Below, piece after piece: positions 4,036-56,512 of a stretch of DNA of 64,000 nt; position 1 is the first letter of the stretch; every line of letters starts with the position of its first letter. The translations under genes were made by a program, and so were the position numbers. This stretch comes from a virus: IMG/VR virus record IMGVR_UViG_3300046323_000587, positions 1 through 64,000 of that record. One strand, written 5' to 3'. The notes beneath the pieces were generated by a model. That model was not told the DNA's origin and did no database searches. It saw only the letters and a program-made list of their open reading frames with translations.

Positions 4036-4281
4036 ATGCTACCACAAGATATTGAAAAGAATTACGATAAAGATAGATTAAAATTAAGAGAAGAAAATAC
4101 TAGAAAGAAGTTAAAGGCTTTATCTATGGGTTATGAATATGTATTAAATGAGGGTTGGTATAATAATAAAGGAGAATTTCTTTGTAGAAATGGTAGTAAA
4201 TTAAACTTTAATATAACAGAATCAAATTATGCAAATTGGAGAAAACATAAAGAAGATAATATATTTAAAAGTCAAAACTAG
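4036..4281 (+). CDS. Hypothetical protein, 81 aa, upstream of a toxin-like gene
   Basis: A small charged, soluble protein with a helical N-terminal half (LREENTRKKLKAL). Its 3' end overlaps the next gene by 53 bases, since the ATG at 4229 lies inside it; that is a long overlap even for this window, so one of the two starts may be wrong. Unknown role. Confidence 0.5.
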   Translation: MLPQDIEKNYDKDRLKLREENTRKKLKALSMGYEYVLNEGWYNNKGEFLCRNGSKLNFNITESNYANWRKHKEDNIFKSQN

Positions 4282-5131
4282 TTTATTAATAATCTTTTTA
4301 TTGGTAAGCTTTTATGGTATTTATAGAGTTGTAGTGAATATTTTGCAACCAAATCAAACAGTAGTTAATTTCAATAATATATTAAATAAATTACAAAATA
4401 CTCAACAAATAACTGTTTATGAGAAAATGGTGTTTTGTGATTCAATACATAAAAATAATGCTTTATTAAAAAGTTATAAACAATATTGTGAGTCAGGAAG
4501 TGAATTTATACAATTTGATTCAGTTTATAAAACCATACACAATAATAATCAATGGACAGATAGTTTAACTGTCCAAAAAACTAGTTATCAATCAACAATT
4601 AATTTTAAACAGGCTTATCAAAAAGAAAATATTTATTTAAATGGTTTATTAGTTTGGAAAGAATTTAAAATTTTAAGCGAAAATTACATAATTAATTCTT
4701 TTCAAGATTCTTTTAAAACTATTATTAATAAAAAAGATTTATTTCATATTTATTTTGGTCATCTATATTTTAATGATGCCTCTGAAACTTTCATCAAAAA
4801 ACTAAACTCGACTCAATTTATTGAAACTGATTTTAATTATGAGTTAAAAAACATTCTCTTTGATTTAGATATGTTATTTAAAAGAATTAACAATCAAAAT
4901 TTATTGTATTTTACAAGTAATGTAGGAAAAGATTCAACTAATTTTAGACTATATTTTAAAATAGATTTAAAACACTATTTATTATTCTTTGATTACAAAT
5001 CTATTATAAAACAACTTCAAATTAAATCATTTCTTGAAATAAAACAAAGTAAAATAAATACATTTATACATCAGAATAATGTTGATAGCTGTTTATTAAA
5101 ACACAATGTAAAATTATACTATAAAAAATAA
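4229..5131 (+). CDS. Membrane-anchored HIxxxH protein, putative BECR-type nuclease toxin (copy 1)
   Basis: A 300-residue protein with a Lys-rich start, one hydrophobic segment (about residues 18-38), an extended middle and the motif FHIYFGH at about 171-177. The C-terminal half has alternating strands and ends in VKLYYKK. Seven other intact proteins here share this plan. The HIxxRH-like motif plus later strands resembles BECR/EndoU-fold RNase toxins (PBECR group); that assignment is inference from motif order. The anchor predicts N-in, C-out topology. It is followed after 12 bases by a 233-residue protein that would be its partner. Confidence 0.6.
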   Translation: MQIGENIKKIIYLKVKTSLLIIFLLVSFYGIYRVVVNILQPNQTVVNFNNILNKLQNTQQITVYEKMVFCDSIHKNNALLKSYKQYCESGSEFIQFDSVYKTIHNNNQWTDSLTVQKTSYQSTINFKQAYQKENIYLNGLLVWKEFKILSENYIINSFQDSFKTIINKKDLFHIYFGHLYFNDASETFIKKLNSTQFIETDFNYELKNILFDLDMLFKRINNQNLLYFTSNVGKDSTNFRLYFKIDLKHYLLFFDYKSIIKQLQIKSFLEIKQSKINTFIHQNNVDSCLLKHNVKLYYKK

Positions 5132-5143
5132 ACCAAATTTGAA

Positions 5144-5845
5144 ATGTTTTCTACAAAAATATATACAGAAATATCTTTGATTTCAAGTCAAACAGCAAAA
5201 TATTTGTATTCTAGTTATAATATTCCAGTAACTTATGAAGAAGATTGTCCGTATATTGTAATACTAGAAATAGATATAAAAACAAAAGAGTACAGATTTT
5301 TATCAAAAAAAGAAAATAATGGTAATTATTTAAGATACACCTTAAAACAAATTAAATTTCTATTAGAAACACCTAATATAGAAGTATGTTCTTCAATAGA
5401 AGCTCTAGCAGATATTTTCTTTAAATACGATAATAAATTATATAGTTTTAACTCTTATGACATACAAAGACAAAGAATGTCTAATAAATTATTACATTAT
5501 AGAGATAGAGCTAAACCTTTATGGAATTTATTTAATGAAGGCGAATATTATTTATTTGATTTCGTATTATCACCAGAAACTATCGAGAATCTTGTACTTG
5601 ATAACAGAACTAAATTAATCAATGAAAAGTATTCTTTATCTCAGCAATATAAATCAATAGCTATTCCTGATTACATTGTTTCTCAAAAGCAATATGATTT
5701 TGTAATTGATTTATACAATAAAAACGGCTGGATTATTCAATATATTGATATAATGAATAATAGTGAAAATTGTTATATATCAAGTAATTTTTTAGATAAG
5801 TATTGTTTAGTTAAAGGTACAGACAAAATAATTAAAATTAAATAA
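5144..5845 (+). CDS. Putative partner (immunity-like) of toxin-like copy 1, 233 aa
   Basis: A soluble protein without signal peptide, 12 bases downstream of the first HIxxxH gene. It is about twice the length of the partner proteins elsewhere. The two halves each contain a short strand-helix pattern (YIVILEIDIKTKEYRFL; DYIVSQKQYDFVIDL), suggesting but not proving two domains. It has no clear similarity to the partner families of other toxins, as expected for subtype-specific immunity. The function is inferred from position only. Confidence 0.45.
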   Translation: MFSTKIYTEISLISSQTAKYLYSSYNIPVTYEEDCPYIVILEIDIKTKEYRFLSKKENNGNYLRYTLKQIKFLLETPNIEVCSSIEALADIFFKYDNKLYSFNSYDIQRQRMSNKLLHYRDRAKPLWNLFNEGEYYLFDFVLSPETIENLVLDNRTKLINEKYSLSQQYKSIAIPDYIVSQKQYDFVIDLYNKNGWIIQYIDIMNNSENCYISSNFLDKYCLVKGTDKIIKIK

Positions 5846-5871
5846 ACTTAGTATAACTATAAAAAAAATTT

Positions 5872-6825
5872 ATGTTAGATACAATAAAAAAAGCAAATTC
5901 AAATAAAGTAAAGTTAGGTTTCGATAATAAATTATATAAAGTAAGTTCTCTATTAATAGTTATAACTATTTTATTAGCTTTAATATATTCTTATTTTATT
6001 ATTAAATCTGAAATTCCAGTTACACCCAAATACGAAGAGCAATTACTTCACAAACTTCAAAGTAAAGACGGAAATCTATCAAAAGAAGAAGTTCAAGTGT
6101 TATTAAATACTTATGGAAAATACAAGATACTTCAGATGCTTTTCACACAAGAGTTTATCGAAGAAAGTTATACTTATGAAGAATTTTTATTAGATTACAA
6201 AGAATTAAAAGATAAACCTATATTTAAAATAGCTTTGTTGTATGAAAAAATTAATTTAAATAAAAGTAGTAATAAAATTATTTTAAATCAATTATACAAT
6301 GAAAATAAAAGAAGAATAAATAAATCAAAACAAAAAAAGGAGTTAATAATTATAACTACTTGTTTAAAATATGTTTTATACAAAGAAATAATAAAAAATT
6401 TTAGGTCTGAACACATTTTTTACATAAAAGATATAAAAATAACTTTAAGTTTATTAAACTTCTTTCATATTTGGATTGGTCACGGTATAGATTATAAAAA
6501 AGATTTTAATATAATTATAGAAGAGCAAACTCTTACAAAAGTACCTGAGTTTAATTACTCTTCTCACAATTTAATATTAGATTTAGATTTTTTATTTTCT
6601 AAAGTAAATAGTTTAGATTTAGATATAAATAACGATTTAAATAAACATAATAAACTATATTTTAAATTTTGTAATTTAGATTATGTTATATCTTTACATA
6701 AAAATAAAGAAAAAGATTTTAATATTACTACAATGTATATAGAAAGCAATGATTATTTAATCAAGAATTTTAATGCATTTATCAGTGTAAACCATCAAAC
6801 AATATATTTTTATGGAAAAAAATAA
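5872..6825 (+). CDS. Membrane-anchored HIxxxH protein, putative nuclease toxin (copy 2)
   Basis: A 317-residue protein: Lys-rich N-terminus, transmembrane segment at about 22-44, a conserved stalk (YEEQLLHKLQ, KYKILQMLFTQEF), then FHIWIGH at about 198-204, and a C-terminal strand region ending IYFYGKK. It is closely similar to copy 3 (8631) across the anchor and stalk and diverges more in the C-terminal domain, a pattern typical of polymorphic toxins. The next gene starts 14 bases before its end, so toxin and partner are translationally coupled. The nuclease assignment rests on the shared motif only. Confidence 0.62.
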   Translation: MLDTIKKANSNKVKLGFDNKLYKVSSLLIVITILLALIYSYFIIKSEIPVTPKYEEQLLHKLQSKDGNLSKEEVQVLLNTYGKYKILQMLFTQEFIEESYTYEEFLLDYKELKDKPIFKIALLYEKINLNKSSNKIILNQLYNENKRRINKSKQKKELIIITTCLKYVLYKEIIKNFRSEHIFYIKDIKITLSLLNFFHIWIGHGIDYKKDFNIIIEEQTLTKVPEFNYSSHNLILDLDFLFSKVNSLDLDINNDLNKHNKLYFKFCNLDYVISLHKNKEKDFNITTMYIESNDYLIKNFNAFISVNHQTIYFYGKK

Positions 6826-7231
6826 TAATTTTTATTTCTATTTTAAAGATTTTTTAAATAGAAATAAAATTTTAAATCTTTTAAAAGAAGAGAAAGTATT
6901 ATTAGAAGAAGATGAAGTTATCACAAATTGTAAAATAGAGAGTCTTGTTTTTTCTTTTAACACCATTAAAGAAAATAATACAAAATTTGGTAATGATATA
7001 CTAATAGAACAAGAAAATACAATAATAAATGTTGTAAAAGTATTAAAAAATATAAAAAATTTTACATATTTTAAGGATAGAATTGACATTTATCAACTAC
7101 CCAATGTGTTAAAATTTATTTCCAAATTTATCCTTACTAGCAAAGAATTAATAATAATAAAAAATCTTGATACTGAAGAAGAGTATTTAATAACTGAAAC
7201 AACAATTATAAATTGCCATAAATATTTATAA
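6812..7231 (+). CDS. Partner family A, member 1 (immunity-like), 139 aa
   Basis: The first of four tandem proteins after toxin-like copy 2. Hallmarks of the family are an N-terminal FYFYF-type strand, a central FTYF segment and a C-terminal block SKELIIIKNL followed by EEYLITE and a terminal Cys-containing tail. Soluble, no signal peptide. It overlaps the toxin-like gene by 14 bases. Immunity is inferred from gene order, size and multiplication. Confidence 0.6.
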   Translation: MEKNNNFYFYFKDFLNRNKILNLLKEEKVLLEEDEVITNCKIESLVFSFNTIKENNTKFGNDILIEQENTIINVVKVLKNIKNFTYFKDRIDIYQLPNVLKFISKFILTSKELIIIKNLDTEEEYLITETTIINCHKYL

Positions 7232-7232
7232 A

Positions 7233-7670
7233 ATGATAGACTTAAAAAATAGTTCTTTTTATTTTTCTTTTGTAGATATTATAGATAGAAATAGAATATT
7301 AAACATAGTAAAAAAGAATAATATTTTTATTTACTCTGACTACTTAATATTAAATCGCAACATACCTTATTTAATTTATTCAAATAATTATATTTCAGAT
7401 AAAACTACATTTTACGATAAAAAATATTATGTATTTGAAAATGAGTCTACTTTTTTTAATACAATTAAAATAATAAAAACATTAAAATCTTTCACTTATT
7501 TACAAATACCTGACAATTTTTTTGAATGTTTTGATTTAAGTAGACTTTTAACTAAATTTGTTTTTAATAGCAAAGAATTGATAGTAATTAAAGATCTTGA
7601 CACGAATGCAGAATATATTGTAACAGAAAAAACAACTATAAATTGTACTAGTTTTTTTATAAAATGTTAG
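7233..7670 (+). CDS. Partner family A, member 2, 145 aa
   Basis: It starts one base after member 1 and carries the same blocks: FYFSF near the start, SFTYL in the middle and SKELIVIKDL with AEYIVTEK at the C-terminus. Sequence between the blocks has diverged strongly from its neighbours, which suggests duplication followed by diversification. Overlaps member 3 by seven bases. Confidence 0.6.
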   Translation: MIDLKNSSFYFSFVDIIDRNRILNIVKKNNIFIYSDYLILNRNIPYLIYSNNYISDKTTFYDKKYYVFENESTFFNTIKIIKTLKSFTYLQIPDNFFECFDLSRLLTKFVFNSKELIVIKDLDTNAEYIVTEKTTINCTSFFIKC

Positions 7671-8119
7671 ACTTAAAAAATAACTATTTTTATTTTTGTA
7701 TAAGAGATATAGAAAAAAATCAAGAACTTATAGAAAAAATAATGCTTAGACATAATTACACAGAACATTGGTTTTCTATTAATACAGAAGTATTTAAGAT
7801 AAATAACAAAACTAAAACAATCTCTGGTAATGGAAGTTCAACTTACTGTAATTATATATTAATAGAAAATCCTGCTGTATTAGACAATATATTAGATGTT
7901 TTAAATAAAGTAAATACTTTTGAATATCTTAAAGAAACTTATCCAAGAGAAGAACGTTATATACATAATAGTTTAACTACAGTTAATATGTTAGCTAGGT
8001 TTTTAATTAATTCAAAAGAATTAATCATTATTAAAGACCTAAAAACATTGAATGAATACATAGTAACAGAAAATAGAGTAATAGATTGCAATAAATATTT
8101 AACCACATTATCTAATTAA
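7664..8119 (+). CDS. Partner family A, member 3, 151 aa
   Basis: Third tandem copy, overlapping member 2. It shares FYFCI, a TFEYLKET segment and SKELIIIKDL with NEYIVTE. The Trp-containing HWFSINTE stretch is closer to members 9598 and 10498, which follow toxin-like copy 3, than to its own neighbours. Partner sets of copies 2 and 3 therefore share ancestry or exchange members. Confidence 0.6.
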   Translation: MLDLKNNYFYFCIRDIEKNQELIEKIMLRHNYTEHWFSINTEVFKINNKTKTISGNGSSTYCNYILIENPAVLDNILDVLNKVNTFEYLKETYPREERYIHNSLTTVNMLARFLINSKELIIIKDLKTLNEYIVTENRVIDCNKYLTTLSN

Positions 8120-8124
8120 ATAAA

Positions 8125-8607
8125 ATGATAGACTATCCCACAAACAATAAATTAAATTTTGTATTAAGCACTTCTATTGATTTAGAAGAATTAGTTAATT
8201 TATTTGAATTAAATAAAGTAAAAATTCATTATAGACTTAAACACAACACTATATACAGATTAGTATTACTGAAAGAAGAAATTATATTAGATGTACCTAA
8301 CAGTAATATTTATTATACTATTACCAATATTAACACTTTTGTAAATTACTTTTCTGCAATAAAAGATACTGATACAACAACACCTATGTATATTATGAAT
8401 GGTGATGACGGTACAGGTGATTCAGAAATAGGTAAATTTCATTTTGATAAAGAACCAGAAGAAGAGGATTTTCCACAAACAAAAGCTTATATTAGTAAGT
8501 TTCTTTATGATGCAGTAGAGTTAATTATATTATCTGATGAACGGTTTAATTGGACATTGATAACAGAAAAAAGCATTGAAAATATAACTCTTACAGATGT
8601 AGAATAA
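8125..8607 (+). CDS. Partner family A, divergent member 4, 160 aa
   Basis: Fourth gene after toxin-like copy 2, five bases downstream of member 3. The C-terminal block is recognisable but altered (AVELIILSDE, TLITEK), and an acidic insertion (DGDDGTGDSE-like, residues about 92-112) is unique. Either a diverged family A member or an unrelated gene with chance resemblance; the position favours the first. Confidence 0.5.
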   Translation: MIDYPTNNKLNFVLSTSIDLEELVNLFELNKVKIHYRLKHNTIYRLVLLKEEIILDVPNSNIYYTITNINTFVNYFSAIKDTDTTTPMYIMNGDDGTGDSEIGKFHFDKEPEEEDFPQTKAYISKFLYDAVELIILSDERFNWTLITEKSIENITLTDVE

Positions 8608-8630: not shown

Positions 8631-9614
8631 ATGATAAAAACAAAAGAAAAAGTTGATAAGGTTGATAAGAAGAACAATTATAACCTAGGTTTTGATAACA
8701 AATTCTATAAAGCAAGTTCATTAGTAATAATTATTTCGATTTTATTAACAATAGTTTTTTCTATTTACCCAATAAAATCTGAAATTCCAATTACGCCTAG
8801 TTATGAAGAACAATTATTACAAAAATTACAGACTAAAGAGGGAAATTTATCAAAAGAAGAAGTTGAAATATTGTTGAATATTTATGGAAAATATAAAATT
8901 CTTCAAATGTTGTTTACTCAAGAGTTTATTGAGGAAGAATATACTTATGAAGAATTTTTATTAGATTACAAAGAGTTGAAAGATAAATTAATTTTTAAAA
9001 TTGCTTTGTTATATGATGAAAAAAATTTAATTGGCAAAAATGCTGTAACTAAAAACAAAGTTATTTTAAATATATTGGGTTCAGATAATAAAGCTAAATT
9101 AGAATATACAAAAGCAATTTATAAAGATTCTTTAAAAGCTGTATTAAATTGTTTAAAATATGTTGTTTATGGAGAAATTAGAAAAAAGTATGAACCTTTA
9201 TATATTTTTAAACTAAAAGATATAGAAATAAAATTTTATATAACCTATTTATACCATATTTGGACAGGACATTGTATAGACTATCAAAAAGATTTTAATA
9301 TTATGTTGAATAAAACAAATATTGTAGATACATTTTCAGAATTTAGAAGAATTAATATATTTTTAGATATTGGTTTTTACGTTCAAAAATTAAATGACTT
9401 GGATTTAGATTATAAGAAGATTTTAACTAACAATGAAAATTTATATTTTAAATTAGGAGAAGTTATATATTGTTTAAGAATTATTGTAAAAAACAATGAA
9501 TATATAATAGAAACTTATTATCCAAAGAATGAAATAGATCTTTCAAGTAAAAAAACAATTATTGAAATTAAACTTAACTATAAAACATATTTTTATTATG
9601 AACACAAAAAATAA
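8631..9614 (+). CDS. Membrane-anchored HIxxxH protein, putative nuclease toxin (copy 3)
   Basis: A 327-residue protein nearly parallel to copy 2: Lys-rich start, transmembrane segment about 28-48, stalk with YEEQLLQKLQ and KYKILQMLFTQEF, motif YHIWTGH at about 207-213, and later strand YIIETYY. The anchor half is strongly conserved with copy 2 whereas the C-terminal half is not. The next gene starts inside its last 17 bases. The BECR-like assignment is inferred; a membrane-localised role is supported by the hydrophobic segment. Confidence 0.62.
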   Translation: MIKTKEKVDKVDKKNNYNLGFDNKFYKASSLVIIISILLTIVFSIYPIKSEIPITPSYEEQLLQKLQTKEGNLSKEEVEILLNIYGKYKILQMLFTQEFIEEEYTYEEFLLDYKELKDKLIFKIALLYDEKNLIGKNAVTKNKVILNILGSDNKAKLEYTKAIYKDSLKAVLNCLKYVVYGEIRKKYEPLYIFKLKDIEIKFYITYLYHIWTGHCIDYQKDFNIMLNKTNIVDTFSEFRRINIFLDIGFYVQKLNDLDLDYKKILTNNENLYFKLGEVIYCLRIIVKNNEYIIETYYPKNEIDLSSKKTIIEIKLNYKTYFYYEHKK

Positions 9615-10044
9615 ATTTTATTTTTACATATACGATACAAAAGAAGACAAAACTCAAGTTGAAAATCTTTGTGTAAAGTATAATTTTATTTGTGACAATA
9701 CTCATCCTTGGTTTTCTGGAGATACAGAATTATATATTATTGATACAATAGAAAAAAATGTTTGGGGAGATAACATTTGTAGTTATGCTAATCGTATTAG
9801 TATAGAAGATATCAATTTTTTAGAAAACATTTTTATTGTATTGAGTAGTTTAACTCAGTTTGAATACTCTAAGAACACTTTTCACAGAGACGAAGATTAT
9901 CGTTACATAAATGGAAAAAAACTTTTAACTACTAGAGAAATGTTAGCTCAGTTTTTATTTAAAAGTAAAGAATTAGTTATTATAAAAGATTTAATAACAA
10001 AAAAAGAGTATTTAATAACAGAGAATAAAATAATTAAATGCTAA
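9598..10044 (+). CDS. Partner family A, member 5, 148 aa
   Basis: The start is placed at the ATG at 9598 (TTATTATG context) rather than at an upstream non-ATG codon, because MNTKNKFYFYI aligns with MGTKNKFYFYI of the gene at 10498. It carries HPWFSGDTELY, LTQFEYSK and SKELVIIKDL with KEYLITE. It overlaps toxin-like copy 3 by 17 bases. Confidence 0.62.
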   Translation: MNTKNKFYFYIYDTKEDKTQVENLCVKYNFICDNTHPWFSGDTELYIIDTIEKNVWGDNICSYANRISIEDINFLENIFIVLSSLTQFEYSKNTFHRDEDYRYINGKKLLTTREMLAQFLFKSKELVIIKDLITKKEYLITENKIIKC

Positions 10045-10048
10045 ATTA

Positions 10049-10495
10049 ATGAAAGATTACAATATACTTTCTTTTATAATATCCTATGAAATAAATAGAG
10101 AAAAATTACTAGCTTTATTAAAACAATCTAATGCAAATCTTCAAAATTTTTTTAACTTCGATGAACAGGAGCCTGGATATGTAATATACAATAATAAAAC
10201 TAATACTTTTTATAGTGATTTTAGTTATATTGTTACAAATACAATTAAAATAGAAAATGAAAATCTATTATTAAATGTATTGAAAGTATTAAAAACTCTA
10301 AATACATTTAATTATTTTATAGAAACAACTAGAATTTTAGAATTGCCTGATAAAAGTAAATTTATTTCTAGTCTTTTATTTAAAAGTAAACATTTAATCA
10401 TTATTAAAGATTTAGAAAATAATAAAGAATATTTAATAACAGAAGACAATATTGTTGATTGTAATGATTTTTTGTCTAAAAAAGTTTTAAACTAA
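10049..10495 (+). CDS. Partner family A, member 6, 148 aa
   Basis: Second partner of copy 3. It has the family C-terminal block SKHLIIIKDL with KEYLITED but lacks the WFS stretch, so resembles members 6812 and 7233. The alternation of subtypes suggests a duplicated two-gene unit. Soluble. Confidence 0.6.
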   Translation: MKDYNILSFIISYEINREKLLALLKQSNANLQNFFNFDEQEPGYVIYNNKTNTFYSDFSYIVTNTIKIENENLLLNVLKVLKTLNTFNYFIETTRILELPDKSKFISSLLFKSKHLIIIKDLENNKEYLITEDNIVDCNDFLSKKVLN

Positions 10496-10497
10496 TT

Positions 10498-10956
10498 ATG
10501 GGTACAAAAAATAAATTTTATTTTTATATAGATTATAGAAAAGAAACAGAGGTTACTGAAATATGTAAAAAATATAAATTTTCTTATGACTATGATCCTC
10601 TTTGGTTTTCTTGTAATACAGAAATATATACTATTGATACAGAAAAAAAATACGTTTGGGGAGATACTGTTTATAATTACAATACTTCCATTGCGATAGA
10701 TAATCTAAATCTACTAGAAAATGTTTTTATTGTATTAAGCAATTTAATTGAATTTGAATACTCTAAAACTACTTTTCAAAGAGATGAAAAAGATTATAGT
10801 TATTTTAAAAATTCAACAACAAAAGAATTGATACCAAGAATCTTATTTAAAGATAAATATTTAATAATAATCAAGAATTTAATTACATTAGAGGAGTATC
10901 TAATTACTGAAAACAGAATTATAAATTGTATCGAATATTTAACTCAAAATAAATAA
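10498..10956 (+). CDS. Partner family A, member 7, 152 aa
   Basis: Third partner of copy 3 and a close paralog of the gene at 9598: KNKFYFYI, DPLWFSCNTE, YVWGDTV, FEYSKTTFQRDE and DKYLIIIKNL are shared with small changes. It starts two bases after member 6 and ends two bases before the AAA ATPase, so all appear to be one transcript. Confidence 0.62.
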   Translation: MGTKNKFYFYIDYRKETEVTEICKKYKFSYDYDPLWFSCNTEIYTIDTEKKYVWGDTVYNYNTSIAIDNLNLLENVFIVLSNLIEFEYSKTTFQRDEKDYSYFKNSTTKELIPRILFKDKYLIIIKNLITLEEYLITENRIINCIEYLTQNK

Positions 10957-16528: not shown

Positions 16529-17551
16529 ATGACTGTACTAATATTAAAAATTAATAAAAAAAAAGTTATTAGAAAACAACCAAAGAATAAATTAACTATT
16601 AAATTATTATTTATTGTTAGTACAATCCTTTCAATAGGAATTTATTTTGTTTATAAAGAATATAAAGAAAGTTATTACAATGATTTAGAAATAAGACTAA
16701 TAAATAAACTTCCATTATCTCAAAAAGAAAAAAACGATTTATGTAAATATTTTTTAGGTACTGATAAAGAAAAATATAAAAAATATTGTTTAAATCAAGA
16801 TACTTCTATTAATAATTTATTAGAGAAATACCTATACAATAGAACAAATATTTCTTATACAGATAGTATAAAAATAGATTCAATTTATCTAGATTTCTTT
16901 AAAAAATTAGACAAAGCTAGATCAATAGAAAATAAAACTGGTAAAAATTTACTAACAGAATCTAAAAAAGTGGTAAATAGTTACAAAGAATATATAAGAA
17001 GAATTAAACATAAAATAAAATACAATGTATCTACAAAAGATATTTATTTATTGACTTTATATGTATATACTCAAATAACAAATGAGAAAATTTTAAATAA
17101 TTATGAGTTTTTTGTTTCTTATAAAAAACATAAGATTATAGTAAATAAATTTTCTTTATTACATATAATAGTTAGACATTATTTTATAAGCAATTATTAC
17201 ATAAATAACAATTCTACTTTATATAAATATACTACTTATAATGAATTAATCATAGAACTACAAAAATTTTTAAAAGCTATTTCTTTTTCTGAACAAATTG
17301 ATAAAACTGTATTATTTGAAAGTAGTCAATCTAAAGATATACAGAATTATAGTGTTTATATGTTTAATGATTCTGTAAAATTAGATTTACATCTAATTAA
17401 ACTTAAAAATACTTTTTTTGTTGAAACATTTTTTGTTCACGATAGTAGTGCAGTATCTAATTTATCTGACAATAGAAAAATAAAAACAACCAATTGTAAT
17501 TATTATAATCTAATTAATAACGTAAAAATATTTTATAAAGATGATAAATAA
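16529..17551 (+). CDS. Membrane-anchored HIxxxH protein, putative nuclease toxin (copy 4)
   Basis: A 340-residue protein: Lys-rich start, transmembrane segment at about 25-43, stalk with LSQKEKNDLCKYFLG and YKKYCLNQ (the LxxxExxxLCxxFL pattern shared with copies 7 and 8), motif LHIIVRH at about 211-217, then strands including FVETFF and a terminal VKIFYKDDK. The architecture matches the other seven copies. It is followed by the largest partner array (five genes), the first overlapping by 11 bases. The nuclease identity is inferred. Confidence 0.62.
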   Translation: MTVLILKINKKKVIRKQPKNKLTIKLLFIVSTILSIGIYFVYKEYKESYYNDLEIRLINKLPLSQKEKNDLCKYFLGTDKEKYKKYCLNQDTSINNLLEKYLYNRTNISYTDSIKIDSIYLDFFKKLDKARSIENKTGKNLLTESKKVVNSYKEYIRRIKHKIKYNVSTKDIYLLTLYVYTQITNEKILNNYEFFVSYKKHKIIVNKFSLLHIIVRHYFISNYYINNNSTLYKYTTYNELIIELQKFLKAISFSEQIDKTVLFESSQSKDIQNYSVYMFNDSVKLDLHLIKLKNTFFVETFFVHDSSAVSNLSDNRKIKTTNCNYYNLINNVKIFYKDDK

Positions 17552-17903
17552 TAACATAAAAGTAATTTGTAAACATTCACAAGATTTTGAATATTTAATT
17601 TTAGAGAATAAATTACCAATAGCAACTAAATATGTAGAAGAATCTAAAATTTTAAAAGAATTGTTAAATTATAAAGACTTTCTACCTTCTAGTTTTTATC
17701 TAAATTTACTTGATTTATTTATTGAACCTTGTGAAACAATAGAAAATTGTGAAGTAAATCCATATTATTTTTATTATTTTGATGAAGAAAGTTTGTACTC
17801 AATTAATGAATTTAAAAATTTATTGTTTAATAAAGAGTATATAACTAAAATAATTGTTAATTATAATTCAATAGAGATAGTATACAATATTTATAAAAAT
17901 TGA
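17541..17903 (+). CDS. Partner family B, member 1 (immunity-like), 120 aa
   Basis: First of five tandem partners of copy 4. Family B members start with a strand of the type IKVICKH, continue with LPIATKYVEE, and end with a strand such as SIEIVYNIYKN. Soluble, no signal peptide. The ATG lies 11 bases inside the toxin-like gene, indicating coupled translation. Confidence 0.6.
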   Translation: MINNNIKVICKHSQDFEYLILENKLPIATKYVEESKILKELLNYKDFLPSSFYLNLLDLFIEPCETIENCEVNPYYFYYFDEESLYSINEFKNLLFNKEYITKIIVNYNSIEIVYNIYKN

Positions 17904-17907
17904 CACA

Positions 17908-18666
17908 ATGAAAAATACAAAGATTAAAGTTTTTTGTTTTAATAAATCTGAAACAAACTATGCAGAATTTTCTAATTTAATTCCAATATATTTAAGTGAA
18001 TATGTAGAAGAGTTTAAAAATATTTTTGGATTTGAAAACATTACTTCAAATAAAGTATTGCTAAATATAGACTTGTTATCAATAAAGAATATTTCTTACG
18101 AAAACTATACTGAGATGTTTTGTTTTAATCCAAATAATTTTTTACAAATAAGATTATTAAGAGAACTGTTTGATTTTAGTAGACATATTTCTTCAATACA
18201 AATAAAGAAAAATTCAATAGCTATTACTAAAACCAGTAAAGAAAACTATATCTACAAAAAAAAAGAATATATTCCTTTAAATTTAAATGAAAATAAAGAT
18301 TGTAGAGTAAGATATTGGTTTAGTAAAGGTTATGTTGATGGAAGCTTTTACTATGAACAAGTAAATAAAGTAAATATTAATTTAGGAATATATTTAAAAG
18401 AATTTGAAGAACTGTTTGGATTTAAAGACATATCAACTTCGAATATAATTTTAGATATTGAAAATAATACAATAGAGCCTAATACTTTTATTGAATATCT
18501 TAAAAAAGACGGTACACCAGAAATAGAATTTAATCCTCACATTATTTTTATTGTAGGTATTTTGAAAGAGTTGATTTCCAGTGATAAAATAAAAGCAGTT
18601 GATATCTATTCAGATAAAATAAAAATCGAAAAACATTCTAATACAAATATTTGTAATTATTATTAA
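17908..18666 (+). CDS. Partner family B, fused double-domain member 2, 252 aa
   Basis: About twice the family length, with two successive family B units: IKVFCFNKSETNYAEF with LIPIYLSEYVEEFKNIFGF, and RVRYWFSKGYVDGSF with INLGIYLKEFEELFGF. Each ends with a KIEI/IQIKKNSIAI-type strand. A tandem duplication appears to have fused by loss of the intervening stop. Confidence 0.6.
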   Translation: MKNTKIKVFCFNKSETNYAEFSNLIPIYLSEYVEEFKNIFGFENITSNKVLLNIDLLSIKNISYENYTEMFCFNPNNFLQIRLLRELFDFSRHISSIQIKKNSIAITKTSKENYIYKKKEYIPLNLNENKDCRVRYWFSKGYVDGSFYYEQVNKVNINLGIYLKEFEELFGFKDISTSNIILDIENNTIEPNTFIEYLKKDGTPEIEFNPHIIFIVGILKELISSDKIKAVDIYSDKIKIEKHSNTNICNYY

Positions 18667-18672
18667 TGCTTT

Positions 18673-19011
18673 ATGAAAATAATTTGTAAACAGTTTATTG
18701 ACAATTCTTATAAAGCATATATAAATAAAATACCAATTTTAGCAAGACATAAAAAAGATTGTTATAATATATTAGATAACGATTTTTTATTAGAAAAAGA
18801 ATATATAACTAAAACTTTTTATTACTTAGATTTAACAGATTTATCTATACAAATTGCTTCTGAAATTTCAATTGAATATAATTATTATTTATTAGATCAA
18901 GAAAATCAACAATCGGTCGATTTTTTAAGTAATATTTTAATTGATTTATCTAGTATTTCTCAAATTATTATAGAAGAAAATAATATACAAATAACTTATA
19001 AATATAAATAA
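18673..19011 (+). CDS. Partner family B, member 3, 112 aa
   Basis: Third copy, six bases after member 2. Shares KIICKQF, KIPILARHKKDC and the terminal IQITYKYK strand. Soluble. Likely same role as its neighbours. Confidence 0.58.
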   Translation: MKIICKQFIDNSYKAYINKIPILARHKKDCYNILDNDFLLEKEYITKTFYYLDLTDLSIQIASEISIEYNYYLLDQENQQSVDFLSNILIDLSSISQIIIEENNIQITYKYK

Positions 19012-19012
19012 T

Positions 19013-19369
19013 ATGGATCAAGATAGAATAGAAGTAATTTGTTGGAATAACGAATTGAATACTTCTGAAAAATTTTATAATGAGATTCCTATCTATATTG
19101 GTGAATATAAAAAAGAGTTTAAAGATTTATTTGCTGTTTCTAGTATAATAGAAGATTATGTTTTTATAGATTTAGTAAATTTAAAAGTAAGTAATCTTAA
19201 AATATCAGAAGAGAATAAAAAATATTGGAAACAATGGATTCAATTTCATCCTGATAACAGTTTCTTAATTAAGAAACTAAAAGAGATTCTTAAATACTCT
19301 GAAAATGTTGATAAAATAGAAATAAAGCAAAATGAATTAATTATTCAGTATAAAATAAATAATAATTAA
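19013..19369 (+). CDS. Partner family B, member 4, 118 aa
   Basis: Starts one base after member 3. Closest to the units of the fused member 2: IEVICWNNELNTSEKFYNEIP, YIGEYKKEFKDLF, and C-terminal KIEIKQNELIIQYK. The shared IPIYIGEYKKEF-like segment is the strongest family B signature. Confidence 0.6.
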   Translation: MDQDRIEVICWNNELNTSEKFYNEIPIYIGEYKKEFKDLFAVSSIIEDYVFIDLVNLKVSNLKISEENKKYWKQWIQFHPDNSFLIKKLKEILKYSENVDKIEIKQNELIIQYKINNN

Positions 19370-19371
19370 TT

Positions 19372-19746
19372 ATGATACAAGTAATATGCGAACACAGAAA
19401 TAATGAAGAACCTTTGATTTTAATTGATAAGTTACCTATATCAGGACCATTTCAAGAAGACATAAATAAATTAACTTCTTTTCTTAATATTTCTAAGATA
19501 AACCACACAGACTTTTATTTAAATTTAATTGACTTTACTGCAATAGAGACAGAGGAATTCTTTTTTGATGATAATAATTTATATTGCTATTTTTATTTAG
19601 ATACAGATTATCAAGATTCATTAAATCAATTGAAACATATTGTAAATAATGTATCTAATATAAAAAGTATAACAATAAAGTTTGAGTCTATTTTAATAGA
19701 ATATTATAGTCATACTAATTTTGTAGACGTACATAAATTAATGTAA
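19372..19746 (+). CDS. Partner family B, member 5, 124 aa
   Basis: Last of the array. Has IQVICEHRN and KLPISGPFQEDI at the N-terminus and ITIKFESILIEYY near the end. Closer to member 1 than to member 4, consistent with alternating duplication. Confidence 0.58.
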   Translation: MIQVICEHRNNEEPLILIDKLPISGPFQEDINKLTSFLNISKINHTDFYLNLIDFTAIETEEFFFDDNNLYCYFYLDTDYQDSLNQLKHIVNNVSNIKSITIKFESILIEYYSHTNFVDVHKLM

Positions 19747-32929: not shown

Positions 32930-32942
32930 AAATCAATCAGAT

Positions 32943-33041
32943 ATGTTTAAAATAAATACAGTTCCAAATAAAGTAAGACATTTTAGTTCTGAAATTAAAT
33001 GAAACTTCACATTAAACTATTTTATCTATATAAAACCATAA
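32943..33041 (+). pseudogene. Toxin-like remnant: N-terminus joined to C-terminus with the middle deleted
   Basis: ATG at 32943 encodes MFKINTVPNKVRHFSSEIK, matching the MFKINQEP and MFKLNHFP starts of copies 6 and 5. After TGA (33000) the same phase gives NFTLNYFIYIKP and TAA; the last eight residues are identical to the end of copy 6 (NYFIYIKP). About 290 codons, including anchor and HIxxxH motif, are missing. It lies where a toxin-like gene would be, between the partner of copy 5 and the broken partner at 33049. Confidence 0.75.
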
Positions 33042-33048
33042 AAAATAT

Positions 33049-34816: not shown

Positions 34817-35215
34817 ATGCTAAATAAAAAAATACCTTTTATAGAAAATAAATTATTTGTCATAACAGAACAAATAAATCAACTTTCAGACAAGTATAAA
34901 AATTTTAATAATTTTAGTTCTGTTAAAGATGCTAATACTTATCTAAATTATTTAGAAATGGATGGAGAATTTGTTATAGTAGATTTTAATAAAAATATAT
35001 TATATAATGAAAGAGAAATTTTAGAAGAAAATTATTATAATTATTGTGAATTTTTTAGATTATCTGATTTAAAAGAAATATTTGATTTATTTAATTTACA
35101 TAAATCTGTTTTTTTTATAAAAACTGATTGGAGTTGTGATGTTTTAGGATGCTGTAGATTAATATGTCGATTTGGAGATAACGTATGGAAAAGTTACCCT
35201 ATTAATGTAATTTAA
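34817..35215 (+). CDS. Partner family C, member 3, 132 aa
   Basis: Contains YKNFNNFSSVKDANTYLNYL, FVIVDFNKNILY and the terminal CRFGDNVWKSYPIN block. It is shorter than 32438 but complete across the family core. Provides the internal reference showing that the TAG at 33381 sits on a conserved Trp codon. Confidence 0.6.
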   Translation: MLNKKIPFIENKLFVITEQINQLSDKYKNFNNFSSVKDANTYLNYLEMDGEFVIVDFNKNILYNEREILEENYYNYCEFFRLSDLKEIFDLFNLHKSVFFIKTDWSCDVLGCCRLICRFGDNVWKSYPINVI

Positions 35216-35238
35216 CTTTTAATTTATAAACAAATATT

Positions 35239-35634
35239 ATGTTAGATATTCCTTACACAGTAAATAAATTATATTTATCATCTGATATGATGAATATGTT
35301 AAAAGTAGAGAATTACAAAGAATTTAAAAACTTTAATTCTTTAAAAGAAGTTCATCAATTTATTACCTATCTTAGTAAAACACCTGATTATGCTATATTT
35401 GAATTAGATACTGGTAAAATCTATGAAAGCAGATTAGGTACATTTGAAGAAAAATATAAGACTGGTTATAGATTTCTTAAACTTGAAGATTACAATGCTT
35501 TTATGGAAATGTATAATCAGTATAAAGATGTTACTATTTTAGATATAGATTGGCTTTATGAAGTTATAGGATTTTATAGATTAATTTGTTGTTTTGGTGA
35601 AGATACTTGGGTAGGTTACAATATAATGAAGTAG
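35239..35634 (+). CDS. Partner family C, member 4, 131 aa
   Basis: Close paralog of 34817 with YKEFKNFNSLKEV, YAIFELDTGKIY and CCFGEDTWVGYNIM. The shared GFYRLICCFG/GCCRLICRFG segment is the strongest match between the two. Soluble. Confidence 0.6.
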   Translation: MLDIPYTVNKLYLSSDMMNMLKVENYKEFKNFNSLKEVHQFITYLSKTPDYAIFELDTGKIYESRLGTFEEKYKTGYRFLKLEDYNAFMEMYNQYKDVTILDIDWLYEVIGFYRLICCFGEDTWVGYNIMK

Positions 35635-36740: not shown

Positions 36741-37736
36741 GTGTTTAGATTAAATCAACTACCAAAAGAAGTAAACACTAAAAAATCAAATTTAGCTACT
36801 AAAATACTAATTCTAGTTTCTATTATAGTATCTATTTATTATTGGGAAGATCTATTAAAGTTGCTCACTGATTTGTTTAGTAGTAACAATATTGAAAAAC
36901 AATACATTAAAAAACTAGAAAACAATGAACGACTAAATGATTCAGAAAGACAATATATTTGTAACTATTTCTTAAATATTGGAGATACAAGTAGTTACAA
37001 TAAATACTGTTTAAATGTTGTAGATGATAAATTTCAAGTTTTGTTTGAAAGATATGTTCAAGATGAAAATTCTATTTCACAAGAAGAATTTGAATATATA
37101 TTTAACACAGCAGAAACCTTTAAATACTTATGTGAACAAGTAAGTGGAGACACTATAAAAGGCGATAAATTACAGAGAGAATGTCAAAAAACAATGAAAA
37201 GTATAACAAAAAATAAAGATGTAAAACATTTAAAAAAACATCTTTTAAAGTGGTATTATATGTTTTATATTTATAACGAGATTGTAAAAGAAGCTAATTT
37301 AAATGGTCTCAATCTAAAATATAAGGTGTATAAAACAGATTCTACTTATATTTATGTTAAACTATTAAATACTTCTTTATTACATATTAAATATAAACAC
37401 TATGAACTAAAAAGTTTTACAGAATCTGAAATTTCTTTATTTAAAAATTATACTTATTACGATGAATTAATAAGAGATTTAAATGAAATCTTTAAATATA
37501 TTACACTAAATAGATTGAAATTAAATAAAATTAATTTTAATACACTTGATCTAGACCTTTATTTAATTTATTTAATTATTAATGATTTGCCGATGACTCT
37601 ATACATTGATAAAGCAACTAATGTTATTACTACTTTTTATATAGAAGAAAAAGATTTTGATAATAAACTGTTGAAAATACAAAATAGTGACACTTTAAAA
37701 TTAAATAAGTATATTAAAATTCTAATTAAAAAATGA
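36741..37736 (+). CDS. Membrane-anchored HIxxxH protein, putative nuclease toxin (copy 7, GTG start)
   Basis: A 331-residue protein starting MFRLNQLP at GTG 36741. Transmembrane segment about 21-39, stalk ERQYICNYFLNIGDT and YNKYCLN matching copies 4 and 8, motif LHIKYKH at about 214-220, strand VITTFYIEEKD and terminal KILIKK. The next gene overlaps by four bases (ATGA). The GTG start is supported by alignment of the N-terminus with copies 5 and 6. Confidence 0.6.
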   Translation: MFRLNQLPKEVNTKKSNLATKILILVSIIVSIYYWEDLLKLLTDLFSSNNIEKQYIKKLENNERLNDSERQYICNYFLNIGDTSSYNKYCLNVVDDKFQVLFERYVQDENSISQEEFEYIFNTAETFKYLCEQVSGDTIKGDKLQRECQKTMKSITKNKDVKHLKKHLLKWYYMFYIYNEIVKEANLNGLNLKYKVYKTDSTYIYVKLLNTSLLHIKYKHYELKSFTESEISLFKNYTYYDELIRDLNEIFKYITLNRLKLNKINFNTLDLDLYLIYLIINDLPMTLYIDKATNVITTFYIEEKDFDNKLLKIQNSDTLKLNKYIKILIKK

Positions 37737-38080
37737 GACATATTCCAGTAAAATATTATTTTGGTAATACACCAGACACAGAATATAAAGTATACGATGA
37801 AATTATATTGTATGATACACTTTGTTTACATACTTTTAATGGTGAAGAATGGGTAGAATATGTTTTAAATTTAAATACATTTAAATTAATATGCACACCT
37901 TTTTTTCTATCTGTTTATCTATTTAATAATCACCGTACTTACGAATCAGTAATTTTTTATATTAAACAACACATTTCTAAAATTAGTTCTATGGAAATTA
38001 ATCGAGAAAGTGACTTAATTATTAATTTTAATGATGGTAGAATTAAAACATTCGAAGCTTATTACCAATATTATATATAA
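37733..38080 (+). CDS. Partner family D, member 1 (immunity-like), 115 aa
   Basis: First of three tandem small proteins after copy 7. Family D signatures are a N-terminal RHIPVKY or RNIPVTY, YVLNLNTFK or YILNLNTLE, and a C-terminal strand after a helix (SSMEINRESDLIINF). Soluble. Overlap with the toxin-like gene gives coupled translation. Confidence 0.6.
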   Translation: MRHIPVKYYFGNTPDTEYKVYDEIILYDTLCLHTFNGEEWVEYVLNLNTFKLICTPFFLSVYLFNNHRTYESVIFYIKQHISKISSMEINRESDLIINFNDGRIKTFEAYYQYYI

Positions 38081-38091
38081 TTAAATATTCT

Positions 38092-38451
38092 ATGAGAAAT
38101 ATACCTGTTACTTATCCTACATCATTAGCAGAAACTTTTATTATTAAATATCAAACAAGACTTCCTGTTAATATTACAACATTAACTTTATCAAATACTT
38201 TATTTTACACATATAAACATAAAGATTACATATTAAATTTAAATACCTTGGAATCAATACAAATTTCTTTTTATTTAGATATACAATACTACGAAAATGA
38301 GATATATTGTAAATATAGTTTAGATTGTATAAAAAAAGAAATACACAAGATAAAATCAATTAAAGTAATTACACATTTACAAGATTGCAATAAAGAAATA
38401 ATAAAATTATTAGTAACGTATAAAGATAATTCAACAAAAATTTATGTTTAG
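38092..38451 (+). CDS. Partner family D, member 2, 119 aa
   Basis: Shares MRNIPVTYP with MRHIPVKYY of member 1 and YILNLNTLESI with YVLNLNTFKLI. The rest has diverged. Overlaps member 3 by eight bases. Confidence 0.6.
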   Translation: MRNIPVTYPTSLAETFIIKYQTRLPVNITTLTLSNTLFYTYKHKDYILNLNTLESIQISFYLDIQYYENEIYCKYSLDCIKKEIHKIKSIKVITHLQDCNKEIIKLLVTYKDNSTKIYV

Positions 38452-38794
38452 AACTTGTTTACATGAAATACAATATAATTCAATATGGTGTTTACATCAC
38501 ACAGATTATAATAAATTAAATAGAATTTATGACGAAGAAAATGTATCATTAGGTAATACAATTTGTATGTATTTTCAAGGTCGTCAACAAATATTTGATA
38601 CAGAATTACTAGAAATTAAAGAAATCCCTTTTGATTTTGGTGTTTATTATTTTAATAATCTAGAAAAAGAAGAAGAAGTTGTAAATACTGTTTTAGAACA
38701 TTATTTAAATATTGATTCTGTTGAAATAACAAAAGAGTCTATGATTATTACATTAAAAGATAAAACAGCATTTACTTTTGAATCTAAATTTTAA
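38444..38794 (+). CDS. Partner family D, divergent member 3, 116 aa
   Basis: Same length and secondary-structure rhythm as members 1 and 2, ending SVEITKESMIITLKDK (compare SMEINRESDLIINFNDG of member 1). N-terminus has diverged. Its presence in the array supports family membership. Confidence 0.52.
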   Translation: MFRTCLHEIQYNSIWCLHHTDYNKLNRIYDEENVSLGNTICMYFQGRQQIFDTELLEIKEIPFDFGVYYFNNLEKEEEVVNTVLEHYLNIDSVEITKESMIITLKDKTAFTFESKF

Positions 38795-51935: not shown

Positions 51936-51953
51936 AGATAAAAATCAAATTAA

Positions 51954-53374: not shown

Positions 53375-53376
53375 CT

Positions 53377-53571: not shown

Positions 53572-53572
53572 A

Positions 53573-54187: not shown

Positions 54188-54189
54188 TT

Positions 54190-54857: not shown

Positions 54858-54859
54858 TT

Positions 54860-55870
54860 ATGGAAATTAAAGAATCGAGCAATAAAACTAAAATAGGTTT
54901 TAATAAATTAACTATTAAGTATTCAAAATATGTGATTATAGTAGCTATACTTTTATCTAGTATAGTCGCTATTTTTTACAATCAAGAAAATAATGAAATT
55001 ACTTATATTAAAAGTTTAGAATTAAAATTAGATAGGAAAGAAGATTTAACTAATGAAGAACATCATTATTTATGTAGACATTACTTAAATTATAACTTAG
55101 ATAAATATTATCTACACTGTCTAAATCAAACAGAACAAGAATCTAAGTTTGTTTCATTATTTGAAATGTTTCTAAATGATTCTAATAGTATTTCAGATGT
55201 AGAAAAGAAATTTTTAGATAGTTTAACTCAAGATTTTATTGTTAAGTGTACAAAAGAAACTTCTTATAATAAGAAAAATTTATATGTAGAAGCAACAAAA
55301 ATATATAAAAGTTTTACATCTGTTGAACAAGATAAATTAAAGAAAAATGTAAATTATGTACCAAAAACCAAACTAAATATCTATAAAATACTTTATTATG
55401 TGTTCATTAAATTATCAAGAGAAAAAAGCTTATTGACATTAAATTATGTGTATAATATAAATGATATTGTAATTACAATAGACACAACAAGTTTATATCA
55501 TATAATTTCTAGACATTATCAATATAAGTATTTAAATGATAACAAATCAAGTTTATATAAATATGAAAACTACGATGAATTGATTTTAGATTTAAATAGA
55601 ATTTTGTTTGCTTTACAATTAAATAAAGAAATATTTAAAGATGTATTTTATCTTAATGGAAACAATGGAACAATATATTTGTTTACACAAGAGTATCAAT
55701 TAGATATACATTTTAATAGAATTAATAATTTTCACTATAAAGTAATTACTTTTTATATCTATGATCCAAGTGAAGTAATAAGAAAAGATCATAGACCTAA
55801 TAGAATTTTAAATAAAAAAGAAATAAAATTATTTAACGATTGTAAAATATATAAAGTAAATGAAAATTAA
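54860..55870 (+). CDS. Membrane-anchored HIxxxH protein, putative nuclease toxin (copy 8)
   Basis: A 336-residue protein: Lys-rich start, transmembrane segment about 22-44, stalk LTNEEHHYLCRHYLNYN and YYLHCLNQ matching copies 4 and 7, motif YHIISRH at about 212-218, then YKVITFYIYDPS and terminal CKIYKVNEN. Intact although it directly follows the degraded belt. The first partner starts 11 bases before its end. Nuclease role inferred. Confidence 0.62.
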   Translation: MEIKESSNKTKIGFNKLTIKYSKYVIIVAILLSSIVAIFYNQENNEITYIKSLELKLDRKEDLTNEEHHYLCRHYLNYNLDKYYLHCLNQTEQESKFVSLFEMFLNDSNSISDVEKKFLDSLTQDFIVKCTKETSYNKKNLYVEATKIYKSFTSVEQDKLKKNVNYVPKTKLNIYKILYYVFIKLSREKSLLTLNYVYNINDIVITIDTTSLYHIISRHYQYKYLNDNKSSLYKYENYDELILDLNRILFALQLNKEIFKDVFYLNGNNGTIYLFTQEYQLDIHFNRINNFHYKVITFYIYDPSEVIRKDHRPNRILNKKEIKLFNDCKIYKVNEN

Positions 55871-56168
55871 TTATTGCGGTTCTTACTACTACAATTCTAA
55901 AATAGTAGAAGAAAATAAATTATTTGTTTGTTTTATTACAGAAGATGAAAAACCTTTTGAAGAATTTGAACATTTTGAAGAATATTGGTTTGATTTTAGT
56001 ACAAACACAAAAATTAAAGAGCTTACTCAAATAGAGCTTAATCCTTTATATGTAGATTGTTCAATACCAATTGAAAAAGAGATATATACTACAATTAAGA
56101 AACACAATAAAAACATATCTGAAATAGATATTCAGCAGAATAAAGTTAAAATAACTTATAAGTATTAA
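55860..56168 (+). CDS. Partner family E, member 1 (immunity-like), 102 aa
   Basis: KINYCGSYYYNSKIVEENKLFV at the start, EYWFDFSTNTKIKELTQIE in the middle and VKITYKY at the end. A second member follows. Soluble, acidic, overlaps the toxin-like gene. Confidence 0.58.
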   Translation: MKINYCGSYYYNSKIVEENKLFVCFITEDEKPFEEFEHFEEYWFDFSTNTKIKELTQIELNPLYVDCSIPIEKEIYTTIKKHNKNISEIDIQQNKVKITYKY

Positions 56169-56173
56169 TTATA

Positions 56174-56512
56174 ATGGAAAGTAATTATTCTGAATACAAT
56201 GGAAAAAATCTAAATGTTTATTATGAAAAACATTGTAATACATTCTACAATGACAGCATTTTTGTACACTTTATTAATTGTTTAGATGATTCTATTAATA
56301 ATAGATCTTTTTGGATAAATTTAAATACATTAGAAAGAGTAGAAGAACTTAAACAAGTAAATATTATTCCTTTTTATGTAGATTTTAATTCTGAATTAGT
56401 TAAAGATATTTATTATTTATTACTAAATTATTACAAATCAATAGAAAAAGTAAGTTTTAATGAATTTGAAATAGAAGTAACTTATAATTATTATAATGTA
56501 CAAGATTTTTAA
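56174..56512 (+). CDS. Partner family E, member 2, 112 aa
   Basis: SFWINLNTLERVEELKQVNIIPFYVDFNSELVKDIY aligns with YWFDFSTNTKIKELTQIELNPLYVDCSIPIEKEIY of member 1, and EIEVTYNYY with VKITYKY. The two-gene array repeats the pattern seen after the other toxin-like genes. Confidence 0.6.
   Translation: MESNYSEYNGKNLNVYYEKHCNTFYNDSIFVHFINCLDDSINNRSFWINLNTLERVEELKQVNIIPFYVDFNSELVKDIYYLLLNYYKSIEKVSFNEFEIEVTYNYYNVQDF

What the first reader, a model, noticed from the sequence alone, without database searches (positions are those of the whole stretch)
4229..56512. Expanded family of eight membrane-anchored HIxxxH proteins with dedicated downstream partner genes
Eight intact proteins of 300-340 residues (4229, 5872, 8631, 16529, 31433, 33851, 36741, 54860) share a Lys-rich start, one transmembrane segment, a stalk, a central HI(x)3H motif at residues 171-220 and a later V/I-x-T-F/Y strand. 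Seen directly: the motifs and the gene order. Known: BECR/EndoU-like RNase toxins (PBECR group) show HIxxRH plus such strands. Inferred: these are toxins, and the small proteins that always follow are immunity proteins. A phage-borne polymorphic toxin set of this size, anchored in the membrane, would be a new type of system for competition or superinfection control.
Basis: partly seen in the sequence, partly recalled or inferred. Interest (0 to 1): 0.93.

Follow-up and report, generated by a model that had tools for sequence, protein, structure and literature searches.

The report
Phage cassettes of toxin-like membrane proteins
A very large crAssphage-like virus carries eight related membrane-anchored proteins that look like RNA-cutting toxins, each followed by its own small set of probable antidote genes, which suggests (but does not prove) a virus-borne toxin-and-immunity arsenal.

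Summary
Eight paralogues (300-340 aa, mostly 16-33% identical, one pair 51%) share an N-terminal membrane helix, an N-terminal helical domain and an invariant HI(x)3H; a Thr/Ser in a later [IV]x[TS] strand is kept in 8/8. Each is followed by small genes; seven of eight have paralogous downstream arrays (20 intact genes plus a decayed ninth cassette) whose family follows the clade of the upstream gene, and five first partners overlap it. The record is a 226-kb crAss-like phage, probably of Flavobacteriia.

No profile library matches. Two AlphaFold models agree on beta-beta-alpha(HI..H)-alpha-alpha-beta-beta-beta; Foldseek is not significant. Profile-profile comparison with bacterial PBECR2-like HIxxxH genes puts both motifs in register and beats 200/200 column shuffles, but P is only 0.003-0.02. 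Two remote, soluble bacterial homologues were found. In the closest pair the catalytic domain evolves much faster than the N-terminus.

Best reading: membrane-tethered BECR-like (predicted RNase) toxins with polyimmunity-like antidote arrays, used in virus-virus or virus-host conflict. Toxicity, RNase activity and antidote function are inferred, and the predicted N-in/C-out topology conflicts with cytoplasmic antidotes. New variant of a known kind.

The parts
4229..5131 (+). HIxxxH protein 1 (300 aa; HIYFGH, IKSFL)
5144..5845 (+). partner u (233 aa), no paralogue found in the record
5872..6825 (+). HIxxxH protein 2 (317 aa; HIWIGH, ITTMY)
6812..8607 (+). array of four y-family partners (6812-7231, 7233-7670, 7664-8119, 8125-8607); the first overlaps the upstream gene by 14 nt
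8631..9614 (+). HIxxxH protein 3 (327 aa; HIWTGH, IETYY); 51% identical to protein 2
9562..10956 (+). array of three y-family partners (9562 or more likely 9601-10044, 10049-10495, 10498-10956); the first overlaps the upstream gene
16529..17551 (+). HIxxxH protein 4 (340 aa; HIIVRH, VETFF)
17541..19746 (+). array of five x-family partners (17541-17903, 17908-18666 with two domains, 18673-19011, 19013-19369, 19372-19746); the first overlaps the upstream gene by 11 nt
31433..32407 (+). HIxxxH protein 5 (324 aa; HIVIKH, VQTYY)
32438..32929 (+). z-family partner
32942..33821 (+). decayed ninth cassette: short MFKIN..P-like start that stops after about 20 codons, then two broken z-like frames (about 33084-33383 and 33384-33821)
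   Evidence: 33384 frame E 1e-7 to the z profile; 33084 frame E 0.025; the start by eye
33851..34807 (+). HIxxxH protein 6 (318 aa; HIVLRH, IKTFH)
34817..35634 (+). two z-family partners (34817-35215, 35239-35634)
36741..37736 (+). HIxxxH protein 7 (331 aa, GTG start; HIKYKH, ITTFY)
37733..38794 (+). three v-family partners (37733-38080, 38092-38451, 38444-38794); the first overlaps the upstream gene by 4 nt
54860..55870 (+). HIxxxH protein 8 (336 aa; HIISRH, VITFY)
55860..56512 (+). two v-family partners (55860-56168, 56174-56512); the first overlaps the upstream gene by 11 nt

Best explanation
Eight toxin-immunity cassettes of one family, amplified in the accessory part of a crAss-like phage. 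The large protein is tethered to the host inner membrane by an N-terminal helix, followed by a conserved helical domain and a C-terminal catalytic domain of BECR-like (metal-independent RNase) design: His residues on one helix, Thr/Ser on a later strand. The small, mostly acidic downstream proteins bind and silence it; extra paralogues in each array silence variants carried by competing viruses (polyimmunity logic). Made in an infected cell, the set would harm an unprotected competitor virus or a host function while sparing the phage's own programme. Shown: family, motifs, gene order, clade matching, uneven evolution. Inferred: toxicity, RNase activity, antidote function, who is attacked, topology.
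For: H, I and H are invariant in 8/8 phage proteins and in both bacterial homologues; Thr/Ser in the [IV]x[TS] strand in 10/10. Models of two different members agree: b-b-a(HI..H)-a-a-b-b-b-a-b-b, pTM 0.65 and 0.71. Profile-profile comparison with bacterial PBECR2-like solo HIxxxH genes aligns H to H and, against the phage profile, also T to T in one 81-column alignment; score 23.4 against at most 16.3 in 200 column shuffles. Those bacterial solo genes overlap a short downstream gene (DUF2283 where tested), the same layout as here. Partner families occur only downstream of the HIxxxH genes and follow their clade: y with 5872/8631, z with 31433/33851, x and v with 16529/36741/54860; the first partner overlaps in 5/8. 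HIxxxH proteins are basic (Mann-Whitney P 0.0014 against other window ORFs), partners acidic (P 0.036). 5872 vs 8631: dN/dS about 0.15 in the N-terminal 125 residues, about 1.3 in the middle and about 0.7 in the catalytic domain.
Against: No convincing Pfam, PHROG, NCBIfam or PADLOC hit; Foldseek has no E below 0.001 and model confidence is only moderate (pLDDT 70). The profile-profile P of 0.003-0.02 is not decisive. Flanking charge predicts N-in/C-out, which would put the domain in the periplasm, away from RNA and from partners that show no membrane helix. The Thr lies on the third strand after the helix, not the fourth as in classical BECR. The two bacterial homologues have other downstream genes (DUF2971; unknown), not the phage partners.
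Confidence: 0.5

Rival explanations
1. Membrane-anchored superinfection-exclusion or abortive-infection proteins in which the C-terminal domain binds nucleic acid or an incoming viral component without cutting it, like PdpSau and AbiP; the small partners modulate specificity or timing rather than being antidotes.
For: N-terminal membrane helix plus basic C-terminal domain is the layout described for prophage-encoded PdpSau and for AbiP (PMC10127798). No catalytic profile matches.
Against: In a family diverged to about 20% identity the kept residues are H, I, H, a Thr/Ser and one Glu, as expected of an active site. Clade-matched overlapping partners look like antidotes.
Confidence: 0.17
2. Host-takeover RNases: the HIxxxH proteins cut host RNA during infection, and the partners are substrate adaptors or regulators.
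For: PBECR domains are phage-borne and were proposed to target host or phage mRNA (PMC5512222); the BECR-like evidence above.
Against: Adaptors do not predict several tandem paralogues per enzyme, strict clade matching, or a catalytic domain that evolves faster than its anchor.
Confidence: 0.15
3. Counter-defence set: the proteins are decoys or inhibitors derived from a bacterial defence protein, and the arrays track host defence diversity.
For: Bacterial homologue L028 lies near a TIR-domain gene and a PIN_12 gene.
Against: Only two homologues were found in roughly 1,290 genome searches of Bacteroidota (some genomes drawn more than once), the other beside a DUF2971 gene; kept active-site residues do not suggest decoys.
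Confidence: 0.1
4. Periplasmic (C-out) hydrolase with a different chemistry, the HIxxxH being unrelated to BECR enzymes.
For: Predicted N-in/C-out topology; no significant fold or family match.
Against: Register of both motifs with PBECR2-like proteins; bacterial homologues without membrane helix.
Confidence: 0.08

Closest known systems
PBECR2-like solo HIxxxH genes with an overlapping DUF2283 gene (Bacteroidota; PF18810 / PF10049)
   Same: strand - HI(x)3H helix - helix - strands ending in [IV]xT.[YF]; a short overlapping downstream gene in 8/8 loci
   Different: about 105 aa, soluble, one partner; no membrane helix or N-terminal domain; partner family unrelated to those here
BECR fold toxins (colicin D, EndoU, barnase, RelE; PMC3482391)
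   Same: His on the N-terminal helix, alcoholic residue on a late strand, toxin-immunity layout
   Different: strand order in the models only partly matches; no profile hit; no known export module
Homogeneous polyimmunity loci of polymorphic toxin systems (PMC3482391)
   Same: tandem paralogous antidote-like genes in one direction with tiny gaps
   Different: here each array is headed by a toxin-like gene, there are several arrays, and all are on a phage; published loci are not interrupted by toxin genes and are usually single per genome
PdpSau and AbiP, membrane-anchored phage-exclusion proteins (PMC10127798)
   Same: N-terminal membrane helix, basic C-terminal domain (PdpSau), PdpSau prophage-borne
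   Different: C-terminal domain described there as OB-like; no partner gene array reported in the passages read
Soluble bacterial homologues L028 (331 aa) and L032 (334 aa) found here
   Same: LTxxEKxFxC-like N-terminal motif, HI..RHY, [ST]FY; same length
   Different: no membrane helix, single copy, other neighbours (TIR, PIN_12; DUF2971)

Membership tests
BECR fold / PBECR | catalytic His on the helix that precedes the sheet | tested here: met
   HI(x)3H invariant in 10/10 and inside a predicted helix in both models; catalysis itself not tested
BECR fold / PBECR | helix followed by a 4-stranded meander, sometimes a fifth strand | tested here: inconclusive
   models show three meandering strands, then a helix and two more strands; pLDDT about 70
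BECR fold / PBECR | Ser/Thr on the late (fourth) strand | tested here: inconclusive
   Thr/Ser conserved 10/10, but on the third strand after the helix
BECR fold / PBECR | significant match to a family profile or fold | tested here: not met
   no PBECR or EndoU hit at E<=10 with the eight proteins or three consensus sequences; Foldseek none below 0.001; hhalign against PBECR2-like solos P 0.003-0.02
BECR fold / PBECR | metal-independent RNase activity | not testable with these tools
   needs biochemistry
Polymorphic toxin system | variable C-terminal toxin domain behind a conserved N-terminus | tested here: met
   74% vs 33% identity and dN 0.17 vs 0.61 between 5872 and 8631 at similar dS; seen in the one close pair only
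Polymorphic toxin system | N-terminal trafficking or release module of a known export route | tested here: not met
   only a membrane helix and a helical domain without convincing Pfam hit
Polymorphic toxin system | adjacent immunity gene | tested here: inconclusive
   position, overlap, charge and clade matching fit; neutralisation not tested
Type II toxin-antitoxin | soluble cytoplasmic toxin with one small antitoxin | tested here: not met
   membrane helix in 8/8, several partners in most cassettes
Crassvirales-like phage (the record) | crAss-type terminase, portal and major capsid protein | tested here: met
   phrog_6681, phrog_6547, phrog_11589; best TerL hits include crAss-like phages at 27-34% identity

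The most novel reading that the evidence does not exclude
A phage-borne, membrane-tethered toxin family with dedicated polyimmunity arrays, maintained and diversified by birth, fast evolution and decay of cassettes, as a weapon in competition between viruses in the same host: a virus-encoded counterpart of bacterial polymorphic toxin systems.
Probability: 0.3. Interest if true: 0.85.

Novelty: new variant of a known kind. Interest (0 to 1): 0.62.

Why it matters
If true, a giant crAss-like phage spends about 18 kb (8% of the record) on a self-diversifying toxin and antidote arsenal, which would extend polymorphic-toxin and polyimmunity logic from bacteria to conflict between phages or between phage and host. 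It also gives a defined set of eight putative enzymes with natural antidote panels, in which the specificity of toxin-antidote recognition can be tested directly.

Tried and rejected
Pfam, PHROGs, NCBIfam and PADLOC scans of the proteins, of partner consensus sequences and of domain consensus sequences: nothing convincing. tblastn in INPHARED phages with three phage members and one bacterial homologue, and in PLSDB plasmids with both bacterial homologues: nothing. Six viral-contig scans with members, member alignments, bacterial homologues and the y partner family: no relative; the tool relies on short conserved peptides and is weak for this family, so absence is not shown. The 141-kb record IMGVR_UViG_3300046328_000499, identical at TerL and capsid, has no HIxxxH gene, but by those positions it appears to cover only about 68-209 kb of this genome, so it is uninformative. 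PDB profile search: no hit. hmmsearch of the phage ORFs with the solo PBECR2-like profile: no hit above shuffles. Full-length PDB Foldseek hits (fluorescent proteins, a HigBA2 entry at E 0.46) were judged noise. The Mu MuF C-terminal domain was fetched as a yardstick, but it is called inactive in PMC5512222 and scores below the MuF_C cut-off, so PF18810 members were used instead. Weak hits L029, L033 and L034 were rejected (broken frames or unrelated proteins).
Full report
WHERE IT IS. The window is bases 1-64,000 of a 226,480-nt virus record. Terminase, portal and major capsid genes are crAss-type; TerL is 27-34% identical to the best hits, among them crAss-like phages of human gut and an Azobacteroides phage. 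GC is 21.6%, start codons lack Shine-Dalgarno signals, and the closest cellular relatives found for the phage's ribonucleotide reductase small subunit are from Flavobacteriia and other Bacteroidota at 56-59% identity, so a Flavobacteriia host is likely (inference). The window is an accessory, almost entirely plus-strand stretch rich in small genes.

THE OBSERVATION. The eight ORFs are real, intact and homologous. A profile of the eight finds exactly eight places in the whole record. Across the family only M1, a Glu in the N-terminal domain and H, I, H of the motif are invariant. Single hydrophobic segments lie within residues 16-49; 4-9 Lys/Arg precede them and 1-5 follow in the next 20 residues. 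Thr/Ser of the later strand is 8/8.

THE PARTNERS. Profile searches over all ORFs show four partner families, y, x, v and z, plus one singleton u. Each occurs only directly downstream of HIxxxH genes: y (7 genes) after 5872 and 8631; x (5, one with two domains) after 16529; v (5) after 36741 and 54860; z (3 intact) after 31433 and 33851. x and v are weakly related to each other (E 7e-5; hhalign P 8.5e-5), and their upstream genes are the closest to one another after the 5872/8631 pair (29-33% identity). Thus partner family follows clade. The first partner overlaps the upstream gene in five cassettes (for 8631 also if the ATG at 9601 is the start). No partner shows a membrane helix by hydropathy. 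HIxxxH proteins are more basic and partners more acidic than other window ORFs. Between 31433's partner and 33851 lies a decayed cassette: a short MFKIN..P-like start that stops after about 20 codons, followed by broken z-like frames. Together the cassettes fill about 17.8 kb.

EVOLUTION. The closest pair, 5872 and 8631, is 74% identical over the first 125 residues and 33% over the catalytic domain, while dS is similar (1.14 and 0.89). dN/dS is about 0.15, 1.3 and 0.7 for the three successive parts. dS is near saturation in this AT-rich genome and the middle part is short, so ratios are rough, but the contrast of dN (0.17 to 0.61) is clear: a constrained anchor and a fast-evolving effector domain.

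FOLD. AlphaFold models from the eight sequences alone: 54860 full length, pLDDT 70.5, pTM 0.65; C-terminal domain of 33851, pLDDT 70.2, pTM 0.71. Both give two strands, the HI(x)3H helix, two helices, three strands with the conserved Thr on the third, a helix and two strands. BECR is described as a helical segment and a four-stranded meander with an alcoholic residue on strand four in many members (PMC3482391); five of six PBECR families as His on the helix and C-terminal Thr/Ser (PMC5512222). Foldseek finds nothing at E below 0.001. Several of the weak viral hits are polyvalent phage proteins, proteins named nuclease, or a minor capsid protein, contexts where PBECR domains are known; this is suggestive only, as no background rate was measured.

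PROFILE-PROFILE TEST. Pfam PBECR2 (PF18810) was searched in 327 Bacteroidota genomes. Two matches, L042 (over the cut-off) and L043 (just below), are solo proteins of about 105 aa with IRL..ERW.HI...H and F[IV].T.YF; a search with the pair collected more. Eight cleaned members were compared with the phage family by hhalign. Against all ten domains: score 23.4, P 0.003, H aligned with H; the best of 200 column shuffles scored 16.3 and the reversed alignment 10.6. Against the eight full-length phage proteins: one 81-column alignment that puts HI..H on HI..H and the Thr strand on the Thr strand, P 0.018. Partner families as targets scored 9-14. This supports distant relationship or convergence on the same design; it is not proof. 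In all eight bacterial loci a short gene overlaps the 3' end of the solo gene; the three tested by Pfam are DUF2283 over the cut-off, and the others look alike by eye.

BACTERIAL HOMOLOGUES. The domain profile found L028 (E 3.2e-4 for one genome, 396 genomes searched, so about 0.13 expected by chance). Its alignment adds independent support: same length, an LTEHEKEFFC match in the N-terminal domain, which was not part of the query, and LDTFY. With it included, L032 was found (E 1.4e-13); it is 35% identical to L028 and keeps HIMSRHY and IQSFYP. The phage-only profile gives L028 20.8 bits (with high composition bias) against 16.0 for the best of 20,000 shuffled sequences, but the reverse search with the two bacterial sequences does not find the phage proteins, and hhalign gives 40% probability, P 3e-4. 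So homology is likely, not certain. Both lack the membrane helix. L028 lies near a TIR gene and a PIN_12 gene; L032 overlaps a DUF2971 gene.

MECHANISM. I commit to membrane-tethered, BECR-like RNase toxins with immunity arrays. The main unresolved problem is topology: the positive-inside rule puts the catalytic domain outside the cytoplasm. Either the rule fails here, or the toxin is bound by its partner before insertion, or the target is not cytoplasmic RNA. A published membrane-anchored exclusion protein shows the same tension: PdpSau is predicted N-in yet described with a cytoplasmic C-terminal domain (PMC10127798).

VERDICT. The family, the arrays and their co-diversification are real and were not matched in any library at hand. 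The toxin-immunity reading is the best supported (about 0.5). It works like a BECR toxin-immunity set; membership in PBECR or in polymorphic toxin systems is not claimed, because a profile or fold match and an export module were tested and not met.

Noticed in passing
G000, whole record (226,480 nt): crAss-like phage larger than the 145-192 kb quoted for the large Zeta and Epsilon groups (PMC10136315), with minus-strand ORFs of 1,446 to 3,833 aa, one with a DprA-like and one with a Dda-like helicase domain.
   Followed up: partly
L047-L053, L056 (Bacteroidota genomes): Solo PBECR2-like HIxxxH genes each overlap a short downstream gene, DUF2283 in the three tested: a toxin-antitoxin-like two-gene module (no paper in the library holds both DUF2283 and toxin).
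   Followed up: partly
42405-43361: EcoRI-type adenine methyltransferase (PF13651, E 9e-84), 31-45% identical to copies in phages of Mycobacterium, Helicobacter, Campylobacter and others; no cognate nuclease noticed nearby.
   Followed up: partly
20449/20912, 21590/25494, 41657/44515, and 22262 with L011:8257-10068: Other apparent paralogue pairs by eye, including two helicase-like proteins with similar starts; the accessory region seems prone to duplication.
   Followed up: no
459-950 and 51954-52271: Macro-domain-like and DUF4326-like small proteins by eye, possibly NAD/ADP-ribose related.
   Followed up: no
10959-12329: AAA ATPase (PF00004) with an unassigned N-terminal half directly behind the third cassette; may or may not belong to it.
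   Followed up: no
L031:474-4831: Bacterial homologue of the family in a neighbourhood with PIN_12 and TIR_2 genes.
   Followed up: partly
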